A stretch of 56,516 nucleotides of DNA from the NCBI GenBank assembly GCA_017454265.1, contig JAFTDJ010000064.1, positions 1 through 56,516 of the forward strand. Reading direction: 5' to 3'. This document shows, piece after piece, positions 16,910 to 55,905 of the stretch. The notes below the pieces were generated by a model, which saw nothing but the letters and a program-made list of their open reading frames with translations, had not been told where the DNA came from and did not search any database. Position 1 is the stretch's first letter; each line of letters begins with the position of its first letter. The stretch comes from Bacteroidales bacterium (GTDB lineage Bacteria; Bacteroidota; Bacteroidia; Bacteroidales; UBA932). The position numbers and the translations under genes were made by a program.

Positions 16910-17014
16910 GATTTCTCCACTCGCTTCGCTCGGTCGAAATGACAGAGACTTACTGTCATTTCGAGCGAAGTCGAGAAATCTCCATATAAGCGAAGCCGGG
17001 AAATCTCCATATAA
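16908..17014. repeat. Inverted repeat (family B) between gatC-like gene and kduI
   Basis: Starts at the stop codon of the permease. Two inverted copies of a repeat (16953-16982 is the right arm; the imperfect left arm begins at 16908) can form a long hairpin. A short direct repeat of AAATCTCCATATAAG follows at about 16976-16990 and 17000-17014. The same 28-bp core lies inside exuT (23027-23054), and relatives sit at 55564 and 55748. It could act as an attenuator or RNA-stability element inside the kduD-gatC-kduI operon. Confidence 0.8.
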
Positions 17015-19184: not shown

Positions 19185-19315
19185 CCTTCTGCGCGCGAGG
19201 ACGCAATTTGATGCCGTTTTGTCGCTTCGCAAGCGGTTTCTCCACTGCTGCAGTCTTTCTCTGCGCGCGAGGACGCAATTTGATGCCGTTTTTAGTCTTC
19301 GTAAATAGAATGCCT
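19185..19315. repeat. REP-like array beside the RAYT-like gene
   Basis: Two copies of a unit beginning GCGCGCGAGGACGCAATTTG start at 19191 and 19263, a 72-base spacing, directly downstream of the transposase stop codon at 19318. The reverse complement begins TTGCGTCCTCGCGCGCAG and is followed about 50 bases later by a GCGAAG-containing half resembling the other side of a hairpin. The same unit and spacing appear at 22101-22269 and 55791-55905. Confidence 0.75.
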
Positions 19316-19317
19316 GG

Positions 19318-20286
19318 CTACAATGCCAGACATCGCCGGATTTGAGCTACGCTGACGGTCTTGTTTTCCAACAAATCATTATTCTTAGCTTTTCCGAATC
19401 TCTTTGACTCCATATAAAGAAGGTTGCCAATCTCATTGCGCCGTGAAACAGGAAGGCTGTAGACAGATTGATAGTCGGATTCTTTTAAGAATCTGGGTAG
19501 AAGAACATTATCGATAAGGGAACATAATTCTATGTCTGTCATAGCGGAATGATTTACTCTTCCCTGTTCGTTTATCAAGGCTTTCTGAACATCAAACTCC
19601 TGGACTCCCTTCTCAACCAGGGCTAAGGAAACCGGCTCCATTTTGTTTTCCGTTTTTTGCTCCTCCAGCACCTTTTCGTCAGTAATCCTATTCATCTGAT
19701 ATAGAAAGTTTCTTGGCGTAATATAGATTTCTTCAACATAAGAGGTATCTATTACGTCTTCCCTGACAATTAGTCCGCTTTTTAACATCTTATAGGAAGA
19801 AGGTAGTTTTTTGTGTTCAGGTAAATACGAGTACTCGCCAATACTCTTTAAGGCTACAATGTTTACATCCTTCCCTAACGCCTTTCTAAAAAAACAGTTG
19901 GCGGAGCAGTGTTCATATTCGAAAGGGGTAGCCGCCAAACCGTGATGAACAGCCTGCCTGATTACATAATTCAAAAGCACTTGGGTATGATGTATTCCTT
20001 CAACTGGCAAAACAAAAACATCTCGTGCTCCTAGTTTTCCTTGCCTGTGATATTTTGCGTTGAAATACCGGGTGTAGGTATATCTGTCCCGTTTAATCAA
20101 TTCCTTGTAGTTATCGGTCTGTACAGCCTTGTGGTTATGGGTGGTAATAAAACCCTCAGCCAAAAGTCTGGAATCAGTATCCCAAACGGCCAGTGCAAGG
20201 CTGTTGAATCCCATTATAAAATCCTCTTCATCCCTGTACAAGACTTCACCGTGGGAAGAAAGACATAAATGCATTGTTTTTCTCAT
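19318..20286 (-). CDS. REP-associated tyrosine transposase-like protein (RAYT, Y1/HUH type)
   Basis: A 322-residue protein. Residues 40-125 resemble the Y1 transposase core: a histidine pair at THNHK (His50 and His52) in the HUH position, YTRYFNAKYHRQGKLGARDVF as the palindrome-binding segment, and LLNYVIRQAVHHGL with candidate nucleophile Tyr107. The 200-residue C-terminal extension is not recognised and ends in a helix-turn-helix-like stretch. The gene is clearly AT-richer than its neighbours, a sign of separate origin. A repeat array touches its 3' end, as for known RAYT genes. Domestication versus mobility cannot be judged here; no terminal inverted repeats of a conventional IS were found. 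Confidence 0.7.
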   Translation of the reverse strand: MRKTMHLCLSSHGEVLYRDEEDFIMGFNSLALAVWDTDSRLLAEGFITTHNHKAVQTDNYKELIKRDRYTYTRYFNAKYHRQGKLGARDVFVLPVEGIHHTQVLLNYVIRQAVHHGLAATPFEYEHCSANCFFRKALGKDVNIVALKSIGEYSYLPEHKKLPSSYKMLKSGLIVREDVIDTSYVEEIYITPRNFLYQMNRITDEKVLEEQKTENKMEPVSLALVEKGVQEFDVQKALINEQGRVNHSAMTDIELCSLIDNVLLPRFLKESDYQSVYSLPVSRRNEIGNLLYMESKRFGKAKNNDLLENKTVSVAQIRRCLAL

Positions 20287-20325
20287 ATAGTACTAAGTTT
20301 AGAGTCAAGTGCGTCCCTGACAAGC

Positions 20326-20333
20326 CAAATATA
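20326..20333 (-). promoter_or_regulatory. -7 box of the RAYT-like gene
   Basis: TATATTTG on the minus strand fits TAnnTTTG, about 40 bases before the ATG at 20286. The plus-strand neighbour at 20368 has only a weaker TATATTTA box at about 20347. Confidence 0.5.
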
Positions 20334-20367
20334 CAATAAAAAGCTGTATATTTACAAACAAATGATT

Positions 20368-22104
20368 ATGAAAAGGTTTATTCATATCGTGATGACCATC
20401 ATGGCAGTCATGGCCATGAATGCTTGCGGGAAGATAGACGGCGGAAACGATGAGCCAGGAAAGGATCTGTCCGCACCAAAGAATCTCACTGTCACTGAAG
20501 CAGCACAAGATGCGTTGTCTTTCAGCTGGTCAGAAGTTGAGGGCGCCCAAAGCTACAAATGGAAGCTTACAAAAAACAGCAGCCCGGTTTCTTCCGGCGA
20601 ATGCTCCCAAGCCGGCATTACGATTAATGGCCTGGAAGCGGGGATCAGGTATGCTTTTTCCGTGCGCGCCGTTTCCGGCGACCTGTCTTCCAGCTGGACG
20701 AACCTGGAAGTCTCAACTCCGGCAGCAGGCCCCGAACCCCTTCCCGGGGCTCTCTGCGTTGATGCCCCGCTGGTATTGACCCCCGAAAAAACTCCGGTTC
20801 TCGGCAGCTCCGGCCTAATCTGCGTATACAAAGCAGACGGCACCCTTGTAGACAGAATTGATATGGCAGACATCGCCACCGTCGATATACTTGATGACGG
20901 GACGATGATCCCCAAGCTCCAGATGAACGCGCATACTGTACTCAACACTTTTATGGACGAGCTGCACAGCAACCGCTACCGCCCTGTGCACTATACTCCC
21001 ATACGCATCAACGGCCAGTCGGTCGAGATAAAACTTCACAACGAGGCCCTTGACTTCAGCAGCTCCTACTATCTCACGGCAGACGAGTCCGCGTTCGGCT
21101 CAGCGGTAGGGAAAGGAGAATTCAGCTTCAGCACCAAAACCAAGCCGTCCGGCAGTACGCTCAAGGTAGCTGCCGACGGAAGCGGTGACTTCTGCACGGT
21201 TCAGGGCGCGCTCAGCTTTGCAAGCACCCTCGGCAAGGATACGGAAGTTTCTATAGAAATATCAAGCGGCACCTACAAGGAACTGTTGTACCTCAGGGAC
21301 AAGAACAACCTGACTATCCGAGGCGCATCCCGCGATGGTGTTGTTATCATATATCCCAACAGTGAGAGCTACTCCGCAGGCTCCGGAGCATCATCTCCCG
21401 GGAAACCGACTGCTGGCTCTGCCGTGGGGGCTATGGGCGGAAGGGGCCTGGCGCTGATAGAGAGCTGCAACAATCTTGTAATAGAGAACTTGACGATAGA
21501 AAACAGCTTCTGGTCAGGCGACCACAAAGGGCAGGCGGAAACCATCTATTTCAACTCTGACGGCATGCGGCTCACGATAGGCAATTGCTCTCTGGTCTCG
21601 TGGCAGGACACGTTTCTCTGCAAAGGGGAAGTATGGGTGCACGATTCCCTGATTGCCGGGCACTGCGACTTCATTTGGGGCTATCCCAAAGCGTGCCTGT
21701 TCGAGAATTGCGAGATACGCTCCCGCGCCGGCGGATATATCGTACAGGCCCGCGTCAATAAGGCTTCCGATAAAGGCTTCATATTTCTGAACTGCAGGCT
21801 GACCGCGGAAAGCGGCGTGAAAGACGGAAGCATGTACCTTGCCAGAAGCGGAGGAGACAACAGTAAGTATGACAACGTGGTGTACGTGAACTGCCAGATG
21901 TCACCCGTAATAGCTACCTCCGGCTGGTATTCATCGCCCGCCCCCAACCCGTCAAAGCCGATTGCAGCCGCGGGGTGGCGCGAATTTGGCAGCGTGACGC
22001 CGGCCGGCGTCTCCGCTTCAGGCGCACGCAATGCTTTCGGGTTGGTGCTTAGCGCCTCCGAAGCTGCCCCCTACTCCTCATTCGAAGCGGTACTTGGCTG
22101 GTAG
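20368..22104 (+). CDS. CE8 pectin methylesterase-like lipoprotein with FN3 domain
   Basis: A 578-residue surface or periplasmic lipoprotein, signal MKRFIHIVMTIMAVMAMNAC with lipidated Cys. An FN3 domain (about 30-115) and an Ig-like stretch (to about 265) precede a right-handed beta-helix pectinesterase domain (about 275-575). Catalytic features kept are GQAETIYF (Gln), SWQDTFLCKG (Asp) and HCDFIWGYP (Asp). The usual YLGRPW motif reads YLARSG, keeping Arg but losing Trp, so specificity may differ. The ATG at 20368 is preferred over 20362 because it gives the best signal peptide. The stop codon forms the first bases of a 73-bp tandem repeat. Confidence 0.85.
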   Translation: MKRFIHIVMTIMAVMAMNACGKIDGGNDEPGKDLSAPKNLTVTEAAQDALSFSWSEVEGAQSYKWKLTKNSSPVSSGECSQAGITINGLEAGIRYAFSVRAVSGDLSSSWTNLEVSTPAAGPEPLPGALCVDAPLVLTPEKTPVLGSSGLICVYKADGTLVDRIDMADIATVDILDDGTMIPKLQMNAHTVLNTFMDELHSNRYRPVHYTPIRINGQSVEIKLHNEALDFSSSYYLTADESAFGSAVGKGEFSFSTKTKPSGSTLKVAADGSGDFCTVQGALSFASTLGKDTEVSIEISSGTYKELLYLRDKNNLTIRGASRDGVVIIYPNSESYSAGSGASSPGKPTAGSAVGAMGGRGLALIESCNNLVIENLTIENSFWSGDHKGQAETIYFNSDGMRLTIGNCSLVSWQDTFLCKGEVWVHDSLIAGHCDFIWGYPKACLFENCEIRSRAGGYIVQARVNKASDKGFIFLNCRLTAESGVKDGSMYLARSGGDNSKYDNVVYVNCQMSPVIATSGWYSSPAPNPSKPIAAAGWREFGSVTPAGVSASGARNAFGLVLSASEAAPYSSFEAVLGW

Positions 22105-22269
22105 ATTGCGTCTTCGCGCACAGAATACAGTCAAAACAGCAGCAATACAGATACGCGAAGACAGAAAGCGGTGGTAGATTGCGTCTTCGCGCACAGAATA
22201 CAGTCAAAACAGCAGCAATACAGATACGCGAAGACAGAAAGCGGTGGTAGATTGCGTCTTCGCGCACAA
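22101..22269. repeat. 73-bp tandem repeat with internal inverted halves
   Basis: Two full identical copies (22101-22173 and 22174-22246) and 22-23 bases of a third. Each unit contains GTCTTCGCG and, about 40 bases later, its exact reverse complement CGCGAAGAC, so each can fold into a hairpin. It relates in sequence and spacing to the arrays at 19185-19315 and 55791-55905. It lies between the convergent ends of the pectinesterase gene and exuT. Confidence 0.85.
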
Positions 22270-22326: not shown

Positions 22327-23790
22327 CTATTCTTCTACCGGCTTATACTTGGGAACCAGCGACTTCATGATGCTCCAGGCGATCAGGTATGCCAGGCCGC
22401 AGAAGCAGAACATGATGAAGTAGCCGGCAGGCTTACCTTCAAAACCTAGGAAACGGAAAGCTGCCCCCTGCGCCTCGGCATAGGTGAAGAGCTGTCCGGC
22501 AACCCATTGTATAATCATTGAGCCTATACCTCCGGCCATGGCGCCTATACCGGTGATGGTGGCGATGGTGCTCTTGGGGAACATATCTCCAACCGTGCTG
22601 AAGAGGTTGGCACTCCAGGCCTGGTGTCCGGCACCCGCGAGGCCGATCAGAATCGCCGGCCACCATGGAGAGTCGAAATGAACTCCCAGCGGCTGGGCGA
22701 ACAATGCGGCAAGCGGGAAGAAGGCGAATATGAGCATGGCAAGCATACGTCCCGAGTAAGGATGCATGCCCTTCTGCTCCACGAACAGCTTGGGCAGGTA
22801 GCCTCCGCCGATGGAAATTACCGTCACGATGAGGTACAGGGTGAAGATGAGCCACTGGCCCAGAGGCGAAGTTGCCGGAGCCTGAAACTGGTTGCTGAAG
22901 TACGAAGGGGCCCAGAACAGGAAGAACCACCATACTCCGTCGGTAAAGAATTTGCCGGCGATGAAACTCCAGGTCTGCTTGAACTTGAAGCACTTAAGGA
23001 ACGGGATTGATTTCTCCTCGCCAGGGGATTTCTCGACTTCGCTCGAAATGACAGAAACCTCCTCTTCATCTTGCCTTATATACTCCAGCTCGGCCTCGTT
23101 CACCCGCTTGCTCTTTTCAGGCTTGTCGTACATGAATGTCCAGAAGAACATCCAGATGAAGCCCAGTCCGCCTATGATGATGAAAGCCATCTCCCAGCCA
23201 AATTTGACCGCGAGAGGCGGAATGAGCAGAGGTGCTGCAAGGGCGCCCACGGATGCACCGGCATTGAAGATTGAGGTCGCGAAGGCCCTGTCCTTCTTTG
23301 GGAAGTACTCGGCTGTGACCTTGATTGCCGCCGGGAAGTTGCCCGCTTCGCCCAGGGCCAGGATGCCGCGGCACAGCAGGAAGAGGTACACCGACGTTGT
23401 AGATACGGCCAGGGCGACATTGGAGCCGGCTTCCACCGCACGCATTGCGGATACGCTGTCGAGCCCTACGATGTGGGTTGTAGCCCAGCCACACAAGGCA
23501 TGCAGGCAGGCGCCTGTGGACCATACTCCTATAGCCACCAGATAGCCTTTCTTGGTGCCCATCCAGTCTACGAACTTACCGGCGAAGAGGCAGCAGACGG
23601 CGTAGAAGATGGAAAAGAAGCTGGTAATGGTGCCGTAATTGGCGTCTGTCCAGTGGAATTCCGGCTTGATGAACTCCTCATAAGTGAGGGAGAGCACCTG
23701 GCGGTCAAGGTAGTTGACCGTGGTTGCAACAAAAAGCAGGCTGCATATCCACCAGCGCCAGTTGGTCATTAATTTTTGATTCGTACTCAT
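22327..23790 (-). CDS. exuT: MFS hexuronate transporter (ExuT family)
   Basis: Proton-coupled uptake of galacturonate and glucuronate across the inner membrane. The 487-residue protein has the MFS two-bundle layout with about 12 helices, NYLDRQVLSLTYEEF near the N-terminus and GEAGNFPAAIKVTAEYFPKKDRA, typical of the anion:cation symporter branch that includes ExuT. The central cytoplasmic loop (about residues 235-255) contains VISSEVEKSPGE, the translation of a genomic repeat that also occurs between genes at 16953. The ATG shares a base with the uxaB stop codon. Last gene of the pectin gene run. Confidence 0.9.
   Translation of the reverse strand: MSTNQKLMTNWRWWICSLLFVATTVNYLDRQVLSLTYEEFIKPEFHWTDANYGTITSFFSIFYAVCCLFAGKFVDWMGTKKGYLVAIGVWSTGACLHALCGWATTHIVGLDSVSAMRAVEAGSNVALAVSTTSVYLFLLCRGILALGEAGNFPAAIKVTAEYFPKKDRAFATSIFNAGASVGALAAPLLIPPLAVKFGWEMAFIIIGGLGFIWMFFWTFMYDKPEKSKRVNEAELEYIRQDEEEVSVISSEVEKSPGEEKSIPFLKCFKFKQTWSFIAGKFFTDGVWWFFLFWAPSYFSNQFQAPATSPLGQWLIFTLYLIVTVISIGGGYLPKLFVEQKGMHPYSGRMLAMLIFAFFPLAALFAQPLGVHFDSPWWPAILIGLAGAGHQAWSANLFSTVGDMFPKSTIATITGIGAMAGGIGSMIIQWVAGQLFTYAEAQGAAFRFLGFEGKPAGYFIMFCFCGLAYLIAWSIMKSLVPKYKPVEE
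23027..23054. repeat. Family B repeat embedded in the exuT coding sequence
   Basis: 28 bases identical to the right arm of the intergenic repeat at 16953-16982. Here it is read in frame as part of the central loop of the transporter. Confidence 0.85.
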
Positions 23791-55515: not shown

Positions 55516-55563
55516 CCGCCAGTCATTCCGAGCTGAAAGGATTGTCATTTCTAGCGCCTCCTC

Positions 55564-55606
55564 CTGTCATTTCGAGCGCAGGCGAAGCCGGAGCCGAGAA
55601 ATCTTT
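55564..55606. repeat. Family B direct repeat, copy 1 (43 bp)
   Basis: Identical over 43 bases to 55748-55790. The TGTCATTTCGAGCG start and GAGAAATCT end match the repeats at 16953-16982 and inside exuT, with a longer middle. Confidence 0.85.
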
Positions 55607-55747
55607 TTCCGGTCGCCGCCACTCCGCTAGCAGGGAACTCCATCCGGCTACGTCCGTCCTCGCTGTTTCCGCTGAAATGACACATTTCCGCGGGCTGCGG
55701 CCGAGTAACGCCGGACAGAGTTCCCTGTCTCGCTCCGCCGGATGCTG

Positions 55748-55790
55748 CTGTCATTTCGAGCGCAGGCGAAGCCGGAGCCGAGAAATCTTT
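55748..55790. repeat. Family B direct repeat, copy 2 (43 bp)
   Basis: Second copy of the 43-bp repeat; joins directly to the REP-like array that begins at 55791. Confidence 0.85.
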
Positions 55791-55905
55791 TCGCGAAGCG
55801 GCAAAACAGTGCTGAAATGCGTCTTCGCGCGCAGGATAAATGCTGAATGCCGAAAATACTGTTCGCGAAGACTGAAACCAGTGGCTAAATGCGTCTTCGC
55901 GAAAG
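55791..55905. repeat. REP-like array, third site
   Basis: GTCTTCGCG at 55821 and 55893 and its reverse complement core CGCGAAG at 55792 and 55864: both halves recur at exactly 72-base spacing. Same family as 19185-19315 and 22101-22269. Confidence 0.8.

What the first reader, a model, noticed from the sequence alone, without database searches (positions are those of the whole stretch)
19185..20286. RAYT-like transposase with its own REP-type array in Bacteroidales
Seen: the gene at 19318-20286 has a Y1/HUH-like core (His50-x-His52, Tyr107) and touches an array of two units spaced 72 bases. The same unit, with inverted halves GTCTTCGCG/CGCGAAGAC, occurs at two other sites in this window. Known: RAYT proteins are domesticated IS200-like transposases that flank and disperse REP hairpins, best described in gamma-proteobacteria. 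Inference: this is a cognate RAYT-REPIN pair in a phylum where such systems are little described. The long C-terminal extension is also unusual.
Basis: partly seen in the sequence, partly recalled or inferred. Interest (0 to 1): 0.75.

Follow-up and report, generated by a model that had tools for sequence, protein, structure and literature searches.

The report
Divergent RAYT transposase with matching hairpin arrays
A gut bacterium carries a distant cousin of the E. coli enzyme thought to copy small DNA hairpins around a genome, together with the hairpin repeats it probably copies; related species often carry different hairpins, which makes this group a good place to learn how such enzymes recognise their DNA.

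Summary
The gene at 19318-20286 encodes a Y1/HUH protein: H50, H52 and Y107 are invariant in 86 of 86 non-redundant relatives, the model has pLDDT 92.8, and its best PDB match is E. coli RAYT bound to a REP hairpin. The 72-73 nt unit holds one ~38-nt hairpin; 11 copies lie at five places in the 76%-complete genome.

Relatives make the link. Hairpins are enriched beside the gene (58 of 83 3' flanks against 5 of 83 shuffles). Stems change with the protein, while the pitch clusters near 72 or 83 nt. The cognate hairpin reaches 65 and 58 copies in two genomes; across four stems tested it is near background or absent in genomes without the matching gene, with one exception.

Corrections: RAYT-like genes with atypical hairpins were already reported in Bacteroidetes. 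And this is not a standard RAYT: conserved ~200-residue C-terminal region, Y---[QN]--HH rather than Y---NP in 80 of 86, no GT[AG]G tag, head-to-tail arrays, found only in one genus among those sampled. In the window itself copy number is low and the gene-adjacent hairpins look decayed. Movement was not shown. New variant of a known kind.

The parts
19318..20286 (-). RAYT-like Y1/HUH gene, 322 aa: catalytic H50, H52 and Y107; conserved C-terminal region from about residue 126
   Evidence: ORF; invariant residues in 86 of 86; fold; relatives match NF047646 REP_Tyr_transpos, 12 of 23 at E <= 1
19190..19307 (-). gene-adjacent array: two hairpin units 72 nt apart, arms partly decayed
   Evidence: profile hits E 3.0e-15 and 1.3e-15 (both are training copies); weak folding of the one tested
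22077..22268 (+). second array, opposite strand: one degenerate and two intact hairpins, 73 nt apart, after the pectinesterase gene
   Evidence: TRF, profile, folding of 22150-22195
55788..55905 (+). third array: two hairpins 72 nt apart

Best explanation
This is a REPtron-like pair: a RAYT-type Y1/HUH single-strand DNA endonuclease and the hairpin family it recognises. Proposed mechanism: the protein binds the hairpin as single-stranded DNA (for example on the lagging-strand template) through its N-terminal domain; Y107 nicks near the hairpin foot, with H50/H52 holding the metal; a segment bounded by hairpins (hairpin, ~34-nt spacer, hairpin) is cut out or copied and joined elsewhere; tandem growth then makes arrays at fixed pitch. 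Gene and hairpin co-evolve, so lineages differ in their stems. Shown here: fold prediction, invariant catalytic residues, gene-hairpin linkage, co-variation of stem and protein, dispersed arrays in carrier genomes. Inferred: binding, nicking, mobilisation, the single-strand route, the cause of tandem growth, and any role of the C-terminal region.
For: Fold: pLDDT 92.8; best PDB match 4er8, E 3.0e-5, probability 1.00, TM 0.66 by target length. Catalytic residues invariant in 86 of 86. Hairpins beside the gene: 58 of 83 3' flanks and 36 of 84 5' flanks score 9 or more, against 5 of 83 and 2 of 84 shuffles, 6 of 78 and 7 of 76 windows 1.1-1.3 kb away. Fixed pitch: 36 of 83 3' flanks with strong self-match, 18 at 71-74 and 9 at 82-84 nt, against 3 of 65 and 2 of 70 far windows. 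Stem similarity rises with protein identity, r 0.26, 0 of 2000 permutations. Copy number follows the gene.
Against: No cleavage, binding or movement was shown, and no empty site was found. Own genome: only 11 copies, 10 of them used to train the profile; could not separate it from control (12 against 13). L126's hairpins sit only around its own gene. G011 has 5 hairpins of a type whose gene was not found. No GT[AG]G tag and mostly no Y---NP motif. P0001 itself has no Pfam or NCBIfam hit. The stem-protein correlation partly reflects shared ancestry.
Confidence: 0.82

Rival explanations
1. The gene with its flanking hairpins is a classical IS200/IS605-like insertion sequence: hairpins are its ends, and dispersed arrays are dead or miniature derivatives.
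For: Y1 fold close to IS200 and IS608 transposases; in several loci the same stem lies on both sides of the gene; most loci have different neighbours.
Against: G000 has one family gene; its other four Y1-like genes are 19-25% identical. Arrays without the gene outnumber it. Flanking arrays are direct in L035 and L126 but inverted in L102. G000, G004 and G011 keep the gene in one syntenic neighbourhood.
Confidence: 0.08
2. The arrays are host regulatory or structural hairpins (terminators or nucleoid sites) and the gene is a bystander.
For: Hairpins often lie just after stop codons, for example 22077-22268 between convergent genes.
Against: Stems differ between lineages in step with the protein and are absent from most non-carriers; tandem units of fixed pitch; both sides of the gene; no Rfam match at gathering score in four sources.
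Confidence: 0.05
3. The inverted arrays form an invertible cassette: the protein or host recombination flips the enclosed genes, changing expression of secreted proteins.
For: At one syntenic locus the RAYT module points opposite ways in G011 and G004, and the pectinesterase gene is reversed in G000 relative to G004, G011 and G054, with arrays at the joints.
Against: Host homologous recombination between inverted repeats suffices. Only four species were compared, and no flip within a species was seen or tested. The serpin-like label of the second gene is my own reading, from no call.
Confidence: 0.04

Closest known systems
E. coli TnpAREP/RAYT and REP/BIME (PDB 4er8; Quentin subclass 2.2)
   Same: Y1/HUH fold (best structural match), gene flanked by hairpins that recur elsewhere in carrier genomes.
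   Different: No GT[AG]G tag; mostly not Y---NP; ~320 aa against a median of 165; hairpins head-to-tail at fixed pitch rather than inverted pairs.
Quentin subclass 2.6 (mostly Bacteroidetes)
   Same: Phylum, low similarity between copies, 'atypical' hairpins without GT[AG]G, copies elsewhere in the genome (PMC6006769).
   Different: Median 179 aa; motifs NH[LIV]H and YIH[QN]NP, against mostly THxH and Y---[QN]--HH here.
Quentin subclass 1.2 (Cyanobacteria, Bacteroidetes)
   Same: Signature Y---Q--HH, met by 59 of 86 members including P0001 (signature).
   Different: 148 aa, DH[IV]H, reported without REPs.
TIRYT / Quentin subclass 2.1
   Same: Long C-terminal extension; flanking repeats of which some recur in the genome (passages).
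   Different: Y---NP type; terminal inverted repeats often with GGGGWSAS, not looked for here; REP-like hairpins reported absent.
IS200/IS605 TnpA (IS608, ISDra2)
   Same: Y1/HUH fold.
   Different: No evidence that the gene moves as a unit here.

Membership tests
Y1/HUH endonucleases | HUH pair, one catalytic Tyr and the Y1 fold | tested here: met
   H50, H52, Y107 in 86 of 86; Foldseek to 4er8 and IS608/ISDra2. The residue between the two His is often not hydrophobic (H 19, N 12 of 86).
RAYT/TnpAREP | gene flanked by a hairpin family that recurs in the host genome | tested here: met
   not met for L126, whose hairpins lie only around its gene
RAYT/TnpAREP | class 2 motif Y---NP (PMC6006769) | tested here: not met
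   Y---NP in 6 of 86; P0001 is Y-VIR-Q
RAYT/TnpAREP | GT[AG]G at the hairpin foot | tested here: not met
   4 of 118 feet, 3.4% against 5.6% expected
RAYT/TnpAREP | two flanking REPs in inverted orientation (PMC2817692) | tested here: inconclusive
   inverted in L102 and around the window and G004 modules, direct in L035 and L126
RAYT/TnpAREP | cuts cognate single-stranded hairpin | not testable with these tools
   needs purified protein
Quentin subclass 2.6 | NH[LIV]H, YIH[QN]NP, about 179 aa | tested here: not met
Quentin subclass 1.2 | Y---Q--HH | tested here: met
   59 of 86; the rest have N
Quentin subclass 1.2 | DH[IV]H, about 148 aa, no REPs | tested here: not met
   D at position 49 in 4 of 86, median 319 aa, hairpins present
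IS200/IS605 insertion sequence | several near-identical gene copies in a genome | tested here: not met
   one copy in G000; not tabulated for other genomes

The most novel reading that the evidence does not exclude
A separate branch of the Y1 family, found so far only in one gut genus (probably Candidatus Cryptobacteroides), that makes a different kind of REPtron: tagless hairpins repeated head-to-tail at a fixed pitch (71-74 or 82-84 nt; 49-52 nt in a second, distant clade of the same genome), with the conserved C-terminal region acting as the ruler or second DNA contact that sets the pitch, and with recognition diverging so fast that related species often have unlike stems.
Probability: 0.35. 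Interest if true: 0.75.

Novelty: new variant of a known kind. Interest (0 to 1): 0.6.

Why it matters
RAYT-REP pairs are studied mainly in gamma-proteobacteria, and how a RAYT comes to recognise one hairpin and not another is open. Here 86 non-redundant enzymes (below 90% identity), 73 of them with a clear hairpin beside the gene, vary together over a wide range of identity. That is a ready-made data set for mapping specificity residues, for swap experiments, and for asking what sets the spacing. It also shows a Y1 subgroup that Pfam mostly misses (4 of 23 at E <= 1) and that carries the signature of a subclass described as not REP-associated.

Tried and rejected
Rejected: (a) chance repeats; (b) known RNA families: none at gathering score in window, L126, L184, L082; (c) carriage on phages or plasmids: no match to P0001 at E <= 1e-5 in 50,697 phage and 72,556 plasmid records, and no relative in a pattern-based scan of viral contigs; (d) a GT[AG]G tag; (e) a general strand bias: G.T pairs on the gene strand 73, on the complement 83 in 3' flanks, 54 and 46 in 5' flanks, although G004 hairpins are asymmetric; (f) a universal spacer motif: GCAAAA in 24 of 84 3' flanks against 35 of 437 far windows, AAAAAC in 23 against 30, enriched but far from universal.

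Led nowhere: single-sequence structure prediction (pLDDT 34.7); PDB sequence searches with profiles (nothing relevant); PHROGs; BFVD (nothing at E <= 0.001); the covariance model kept only 4 pairs, so one search is in effect a sequence-profile search whose 11 hits include its 10 training copies. The pattern does not separate G000 (12) from its control (13). One search counted palindromic hits on both strands; its conservation figures are not used and were redone, where hairpins were picked by an arm pattern with up to 4 substitutions, which favours conserved arms.

Rows dropped: 24 of 110 genes with 90% identity or more to a kept one. Flanks too short for a test window were left out: 83 (3'), 84 (5'), 78 and 76 (far) of 86 used; 83, 83, 65 and 70. 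13 of 86 loci without a hairpin of score 9 were left out. One search kept 80 of 123 relatives. Foldseek, genome-search and paper tables were capped lists.

Full report
CHECK. The window is contig C45 of a genome of 1.94 Mb, 75.65% complete. The ORF at 19318-20286 (-) is intact, 322 aa. The gene-adjacent pair of units and the arrays at 22077-22268 and 55788-55905 are real, and the exact half occurs 8 times against 0.74 expected. A profile of the unit finds 11 copies at E <= 7.8e-10 at five places: three in the window, C20:446-635 (3 copies) and C23:188-233 (1), plus a weaker hit at C52 (E 7e-5). Ten of these 11 were training copies.

PROTEIN. P0001 has no Pfam or NCBIfam hit at E <= 10. Of 23 aligned relatives scanned at E <= 1, 12 match NF047646 'REP-associated tyrosine transposase' (best 1.8e-10) and 4 match Pfam Y1_Tnp (best 5.2e-4). 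With a 61-sequence alignment AlphaFold2 gives pLDDT 92.8, pTM 0.92; the best PDB match is 4er8, the E. coli RAYT with a REP hairpin (E 3.0e-5, probability 1.00, TM 0.66 by target and 0.35 by query length), then IS200-type transposases. H50, H52, Y107, H114, H115 and E225 are invariant in 86 of 86 non-redundant relatives; D251, C255, Y276, R318 and C319 are the only residue in the 85 members with a residue there. The long C-terminal region is thus a family trait. The Y motif is Y---Qx-HH in 59, Y---Nx-HH in 21 and Y---NP-HH in 6 of 86.

DISTRIBUTION. Among 101 genomes of the genus 72 match at E <= 1e-5, which includes distant paralogs; 31 match at E <= 1e-30 (my count from the table, checked). 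Among 295 genomes drawn from 183 genera of the order only the own genome matches at E <= 1e-25; the rows shown there hold one other genome of the genus, without a match, and two of other genera of the family, so close kin are thinly sampled. A scan of named genomes found 123 relatives and kept 80; the 80 titles are Bacteroidales or Bacteroidia, most of them named after rumen or other herbivore-gut samples, and one is Candidatus Cryptobacteroides caccocaballi. That the genus is Cryptobacteroides is an inference from that title.

HAIRPINS BESIDE THE GENE. In 86 non-redundant loci the best stem within 200 nt 3' of the gene scores 9 or more in 58 of 83, against 5 of 83 dinucleotide shuffles and 6 of 78 windows 1.1 kb away; 5' of the gene 36 of 84, against 2 of 84 and 7 of 76. 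36 of 83 3' flanks show a strong tandem self-match, 18 of them at shifts of 71-74 and 9 at 82-84 nt; 5' flanks 16 of 83; far windows 3 of 65 and 2 of 70, of which three are again at 72 or 83. Hairpin length has a median of 44 nt over 59 hairpins. L126 has 10 units before and 6 after its gene at 72 nt (read by eye). So pitch is kept far better than sequence.

CO-EVOLUTION. Over the 73 of 86 loci with a hairpin of score 9 or more, the longest shared stem word grows from 3.6 nt at 30-40% protein identity to 6.6 nt at 70-80% (r 0.26, 0 of 2000 permutations). Shared ancestry contributes and was not removed. One isolate, RGIG5938, has three family genes (L089, L102, L119) with three different stems.

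COPIES FOLLOW THE GENE. Stem CGAAGAC-N20-GTCTTCG with up to 2 mismatches: G004 71 (reversed-pattern control 9), G011 42 (11), G067 31 (24), own 12 (13), the other 97 genomes 0-17. G004 and G011 hold the two closest orthologs, 62% identical. A stricter pattern gives 66 hits, 65 distinct positions, with 0 control hits in G004, at 18 places on 15 contigs by my count; several are at contig ends and may belong together. Stem CGACAGGA: 58, 8, 8, 7, 3 and 6 in the genomes of L119, L090, L091, L096, L097 and L124; of 20 other genomes 19 have 0 and G011 has 5, unexplained; controls 0. Stem GCCGCGATTGCA: G038 25 forward and 18 reverse, G005 8 and 10, G037 1 and 1, 0 in 23 others, eight of which carry a family gene with another stem. 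L126's stem: 14 hits, all around its own gene, 0 in 13 other genomes. The other genomes were chosen by me, not drawn at random.

ARRAY ANATOMY. In ten stretches of G004 the arrays have 2-6 hairpins separated by ~34-nt spacers. By eye most begin and end at a hairpin foot; exceptions: L185 keeps spacer-like sequence before its first hairpin, L179 part of one, and L186 and L187 share about 24 nt of 5' flank, which I cannot explain. The arrays mostly lie between the larger ORFs, but some ORFs overlap them (for example 452 aa in L182) and no annotation was available. Over 31 full units 15 base pairs are kept, three of them mostly G.T on the gene strand, and in the two hairpins tested the gene strand folds better than its complement (-9.1 against -5.1, -7.8 against -4.5 kcal/mol). 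This asymmetry is not general in the family.

REARRANGEMENT. At a syntenic locus the RAYT module points one way in G011 and the other in G004 relative to neighbouring genes, and the pectinesterase gene (Pfam) is reversed in G000 relative to G004, G011 and G054; arrays lie at the joints, in G011 one of them reduced to one hairpin and a part. Recombination between inverted arrays explains this without a special enzyme.

KNOWN OR NEW. PMC2817692 (passages) defined RAYTs as flanked by two inverted REPs and saw none outside gamma-proteobacteria. PMC6006769 (abstract, passages, sections 11 and 12, first part of 15) reports subclass 2.6 in Bacteroidetes with atypical hairpins, subclass 2.4 partly in Bacteroidetes, and subclass 1.2 with Y---Q--HH and no REPs. 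PMC8266576 (passages) describes the GTAG and bulge determinants. PMC3733652 (passages) describes TIRYTs, and CGTC repeats in five phyla including Bacteroidetes without a dedicated transposase. PMC11194056 (passages) mentions RayT genes in Chryseobacterium; the passages shown speak of no repeats. Five searches of the held library (capped lists) showed me no paper on RAYT arrays in Cryptobacteroides; subscription papers are mostly not held, and the Bertels grouping is known to me only by recall and through PMC6006769. The family therefore works like a RAYT, fails two defining class-2 features (Y---NP in 80 of 86, GT[AG]G), and is best called a new variant of a known kind.

Noticed in passing
L021, L022, L024 and L023 (own-genome contigs C22, C23, C63, C3): Four distant RAYT-like paralogs (19-25% identity). 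Three have their own flanking repeats: 52-nt spacing in L022 (both sides) and L024, 49 nt in L021; L023 shows none that recurs.
   Followed up: partly
L051, L055, L059, L090, L091, L096, L119, L124, upstream of the gene; also L184:2398-2787: A Myb/sigma-region-4-like HTH gene lies upstream on the same strand in 8 of 86 loci, within 55 nt of the RAYT in 7 and one ORF away in L059; a possible partner.
   Followed up: partly
window 19185-22264; L203; L204: Genes between inverted arrays are in opposite orientation in related species.
   Followed up: partly
window 16931-16967, 23040-23052, 55544-55762: A second dispersed repeat around GTCATTTCGAGCG: 6 matches at up to 1 mismatch against 0.12 expected. 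One copy lies inside the ORF 22327-23790, and 27-39-base matches to that stretch occur in many genus genomes.
   Followed up: no
G011: Five exact CGACAGGA-type hairpins although no matching gene was seen in that 85%-complete genome.
   Followed up: no
L186 and L187 (G004 contigs C30 and C87): Two two-hairpin arrays share about 24 nt of 5' flank.
   Followed up: no
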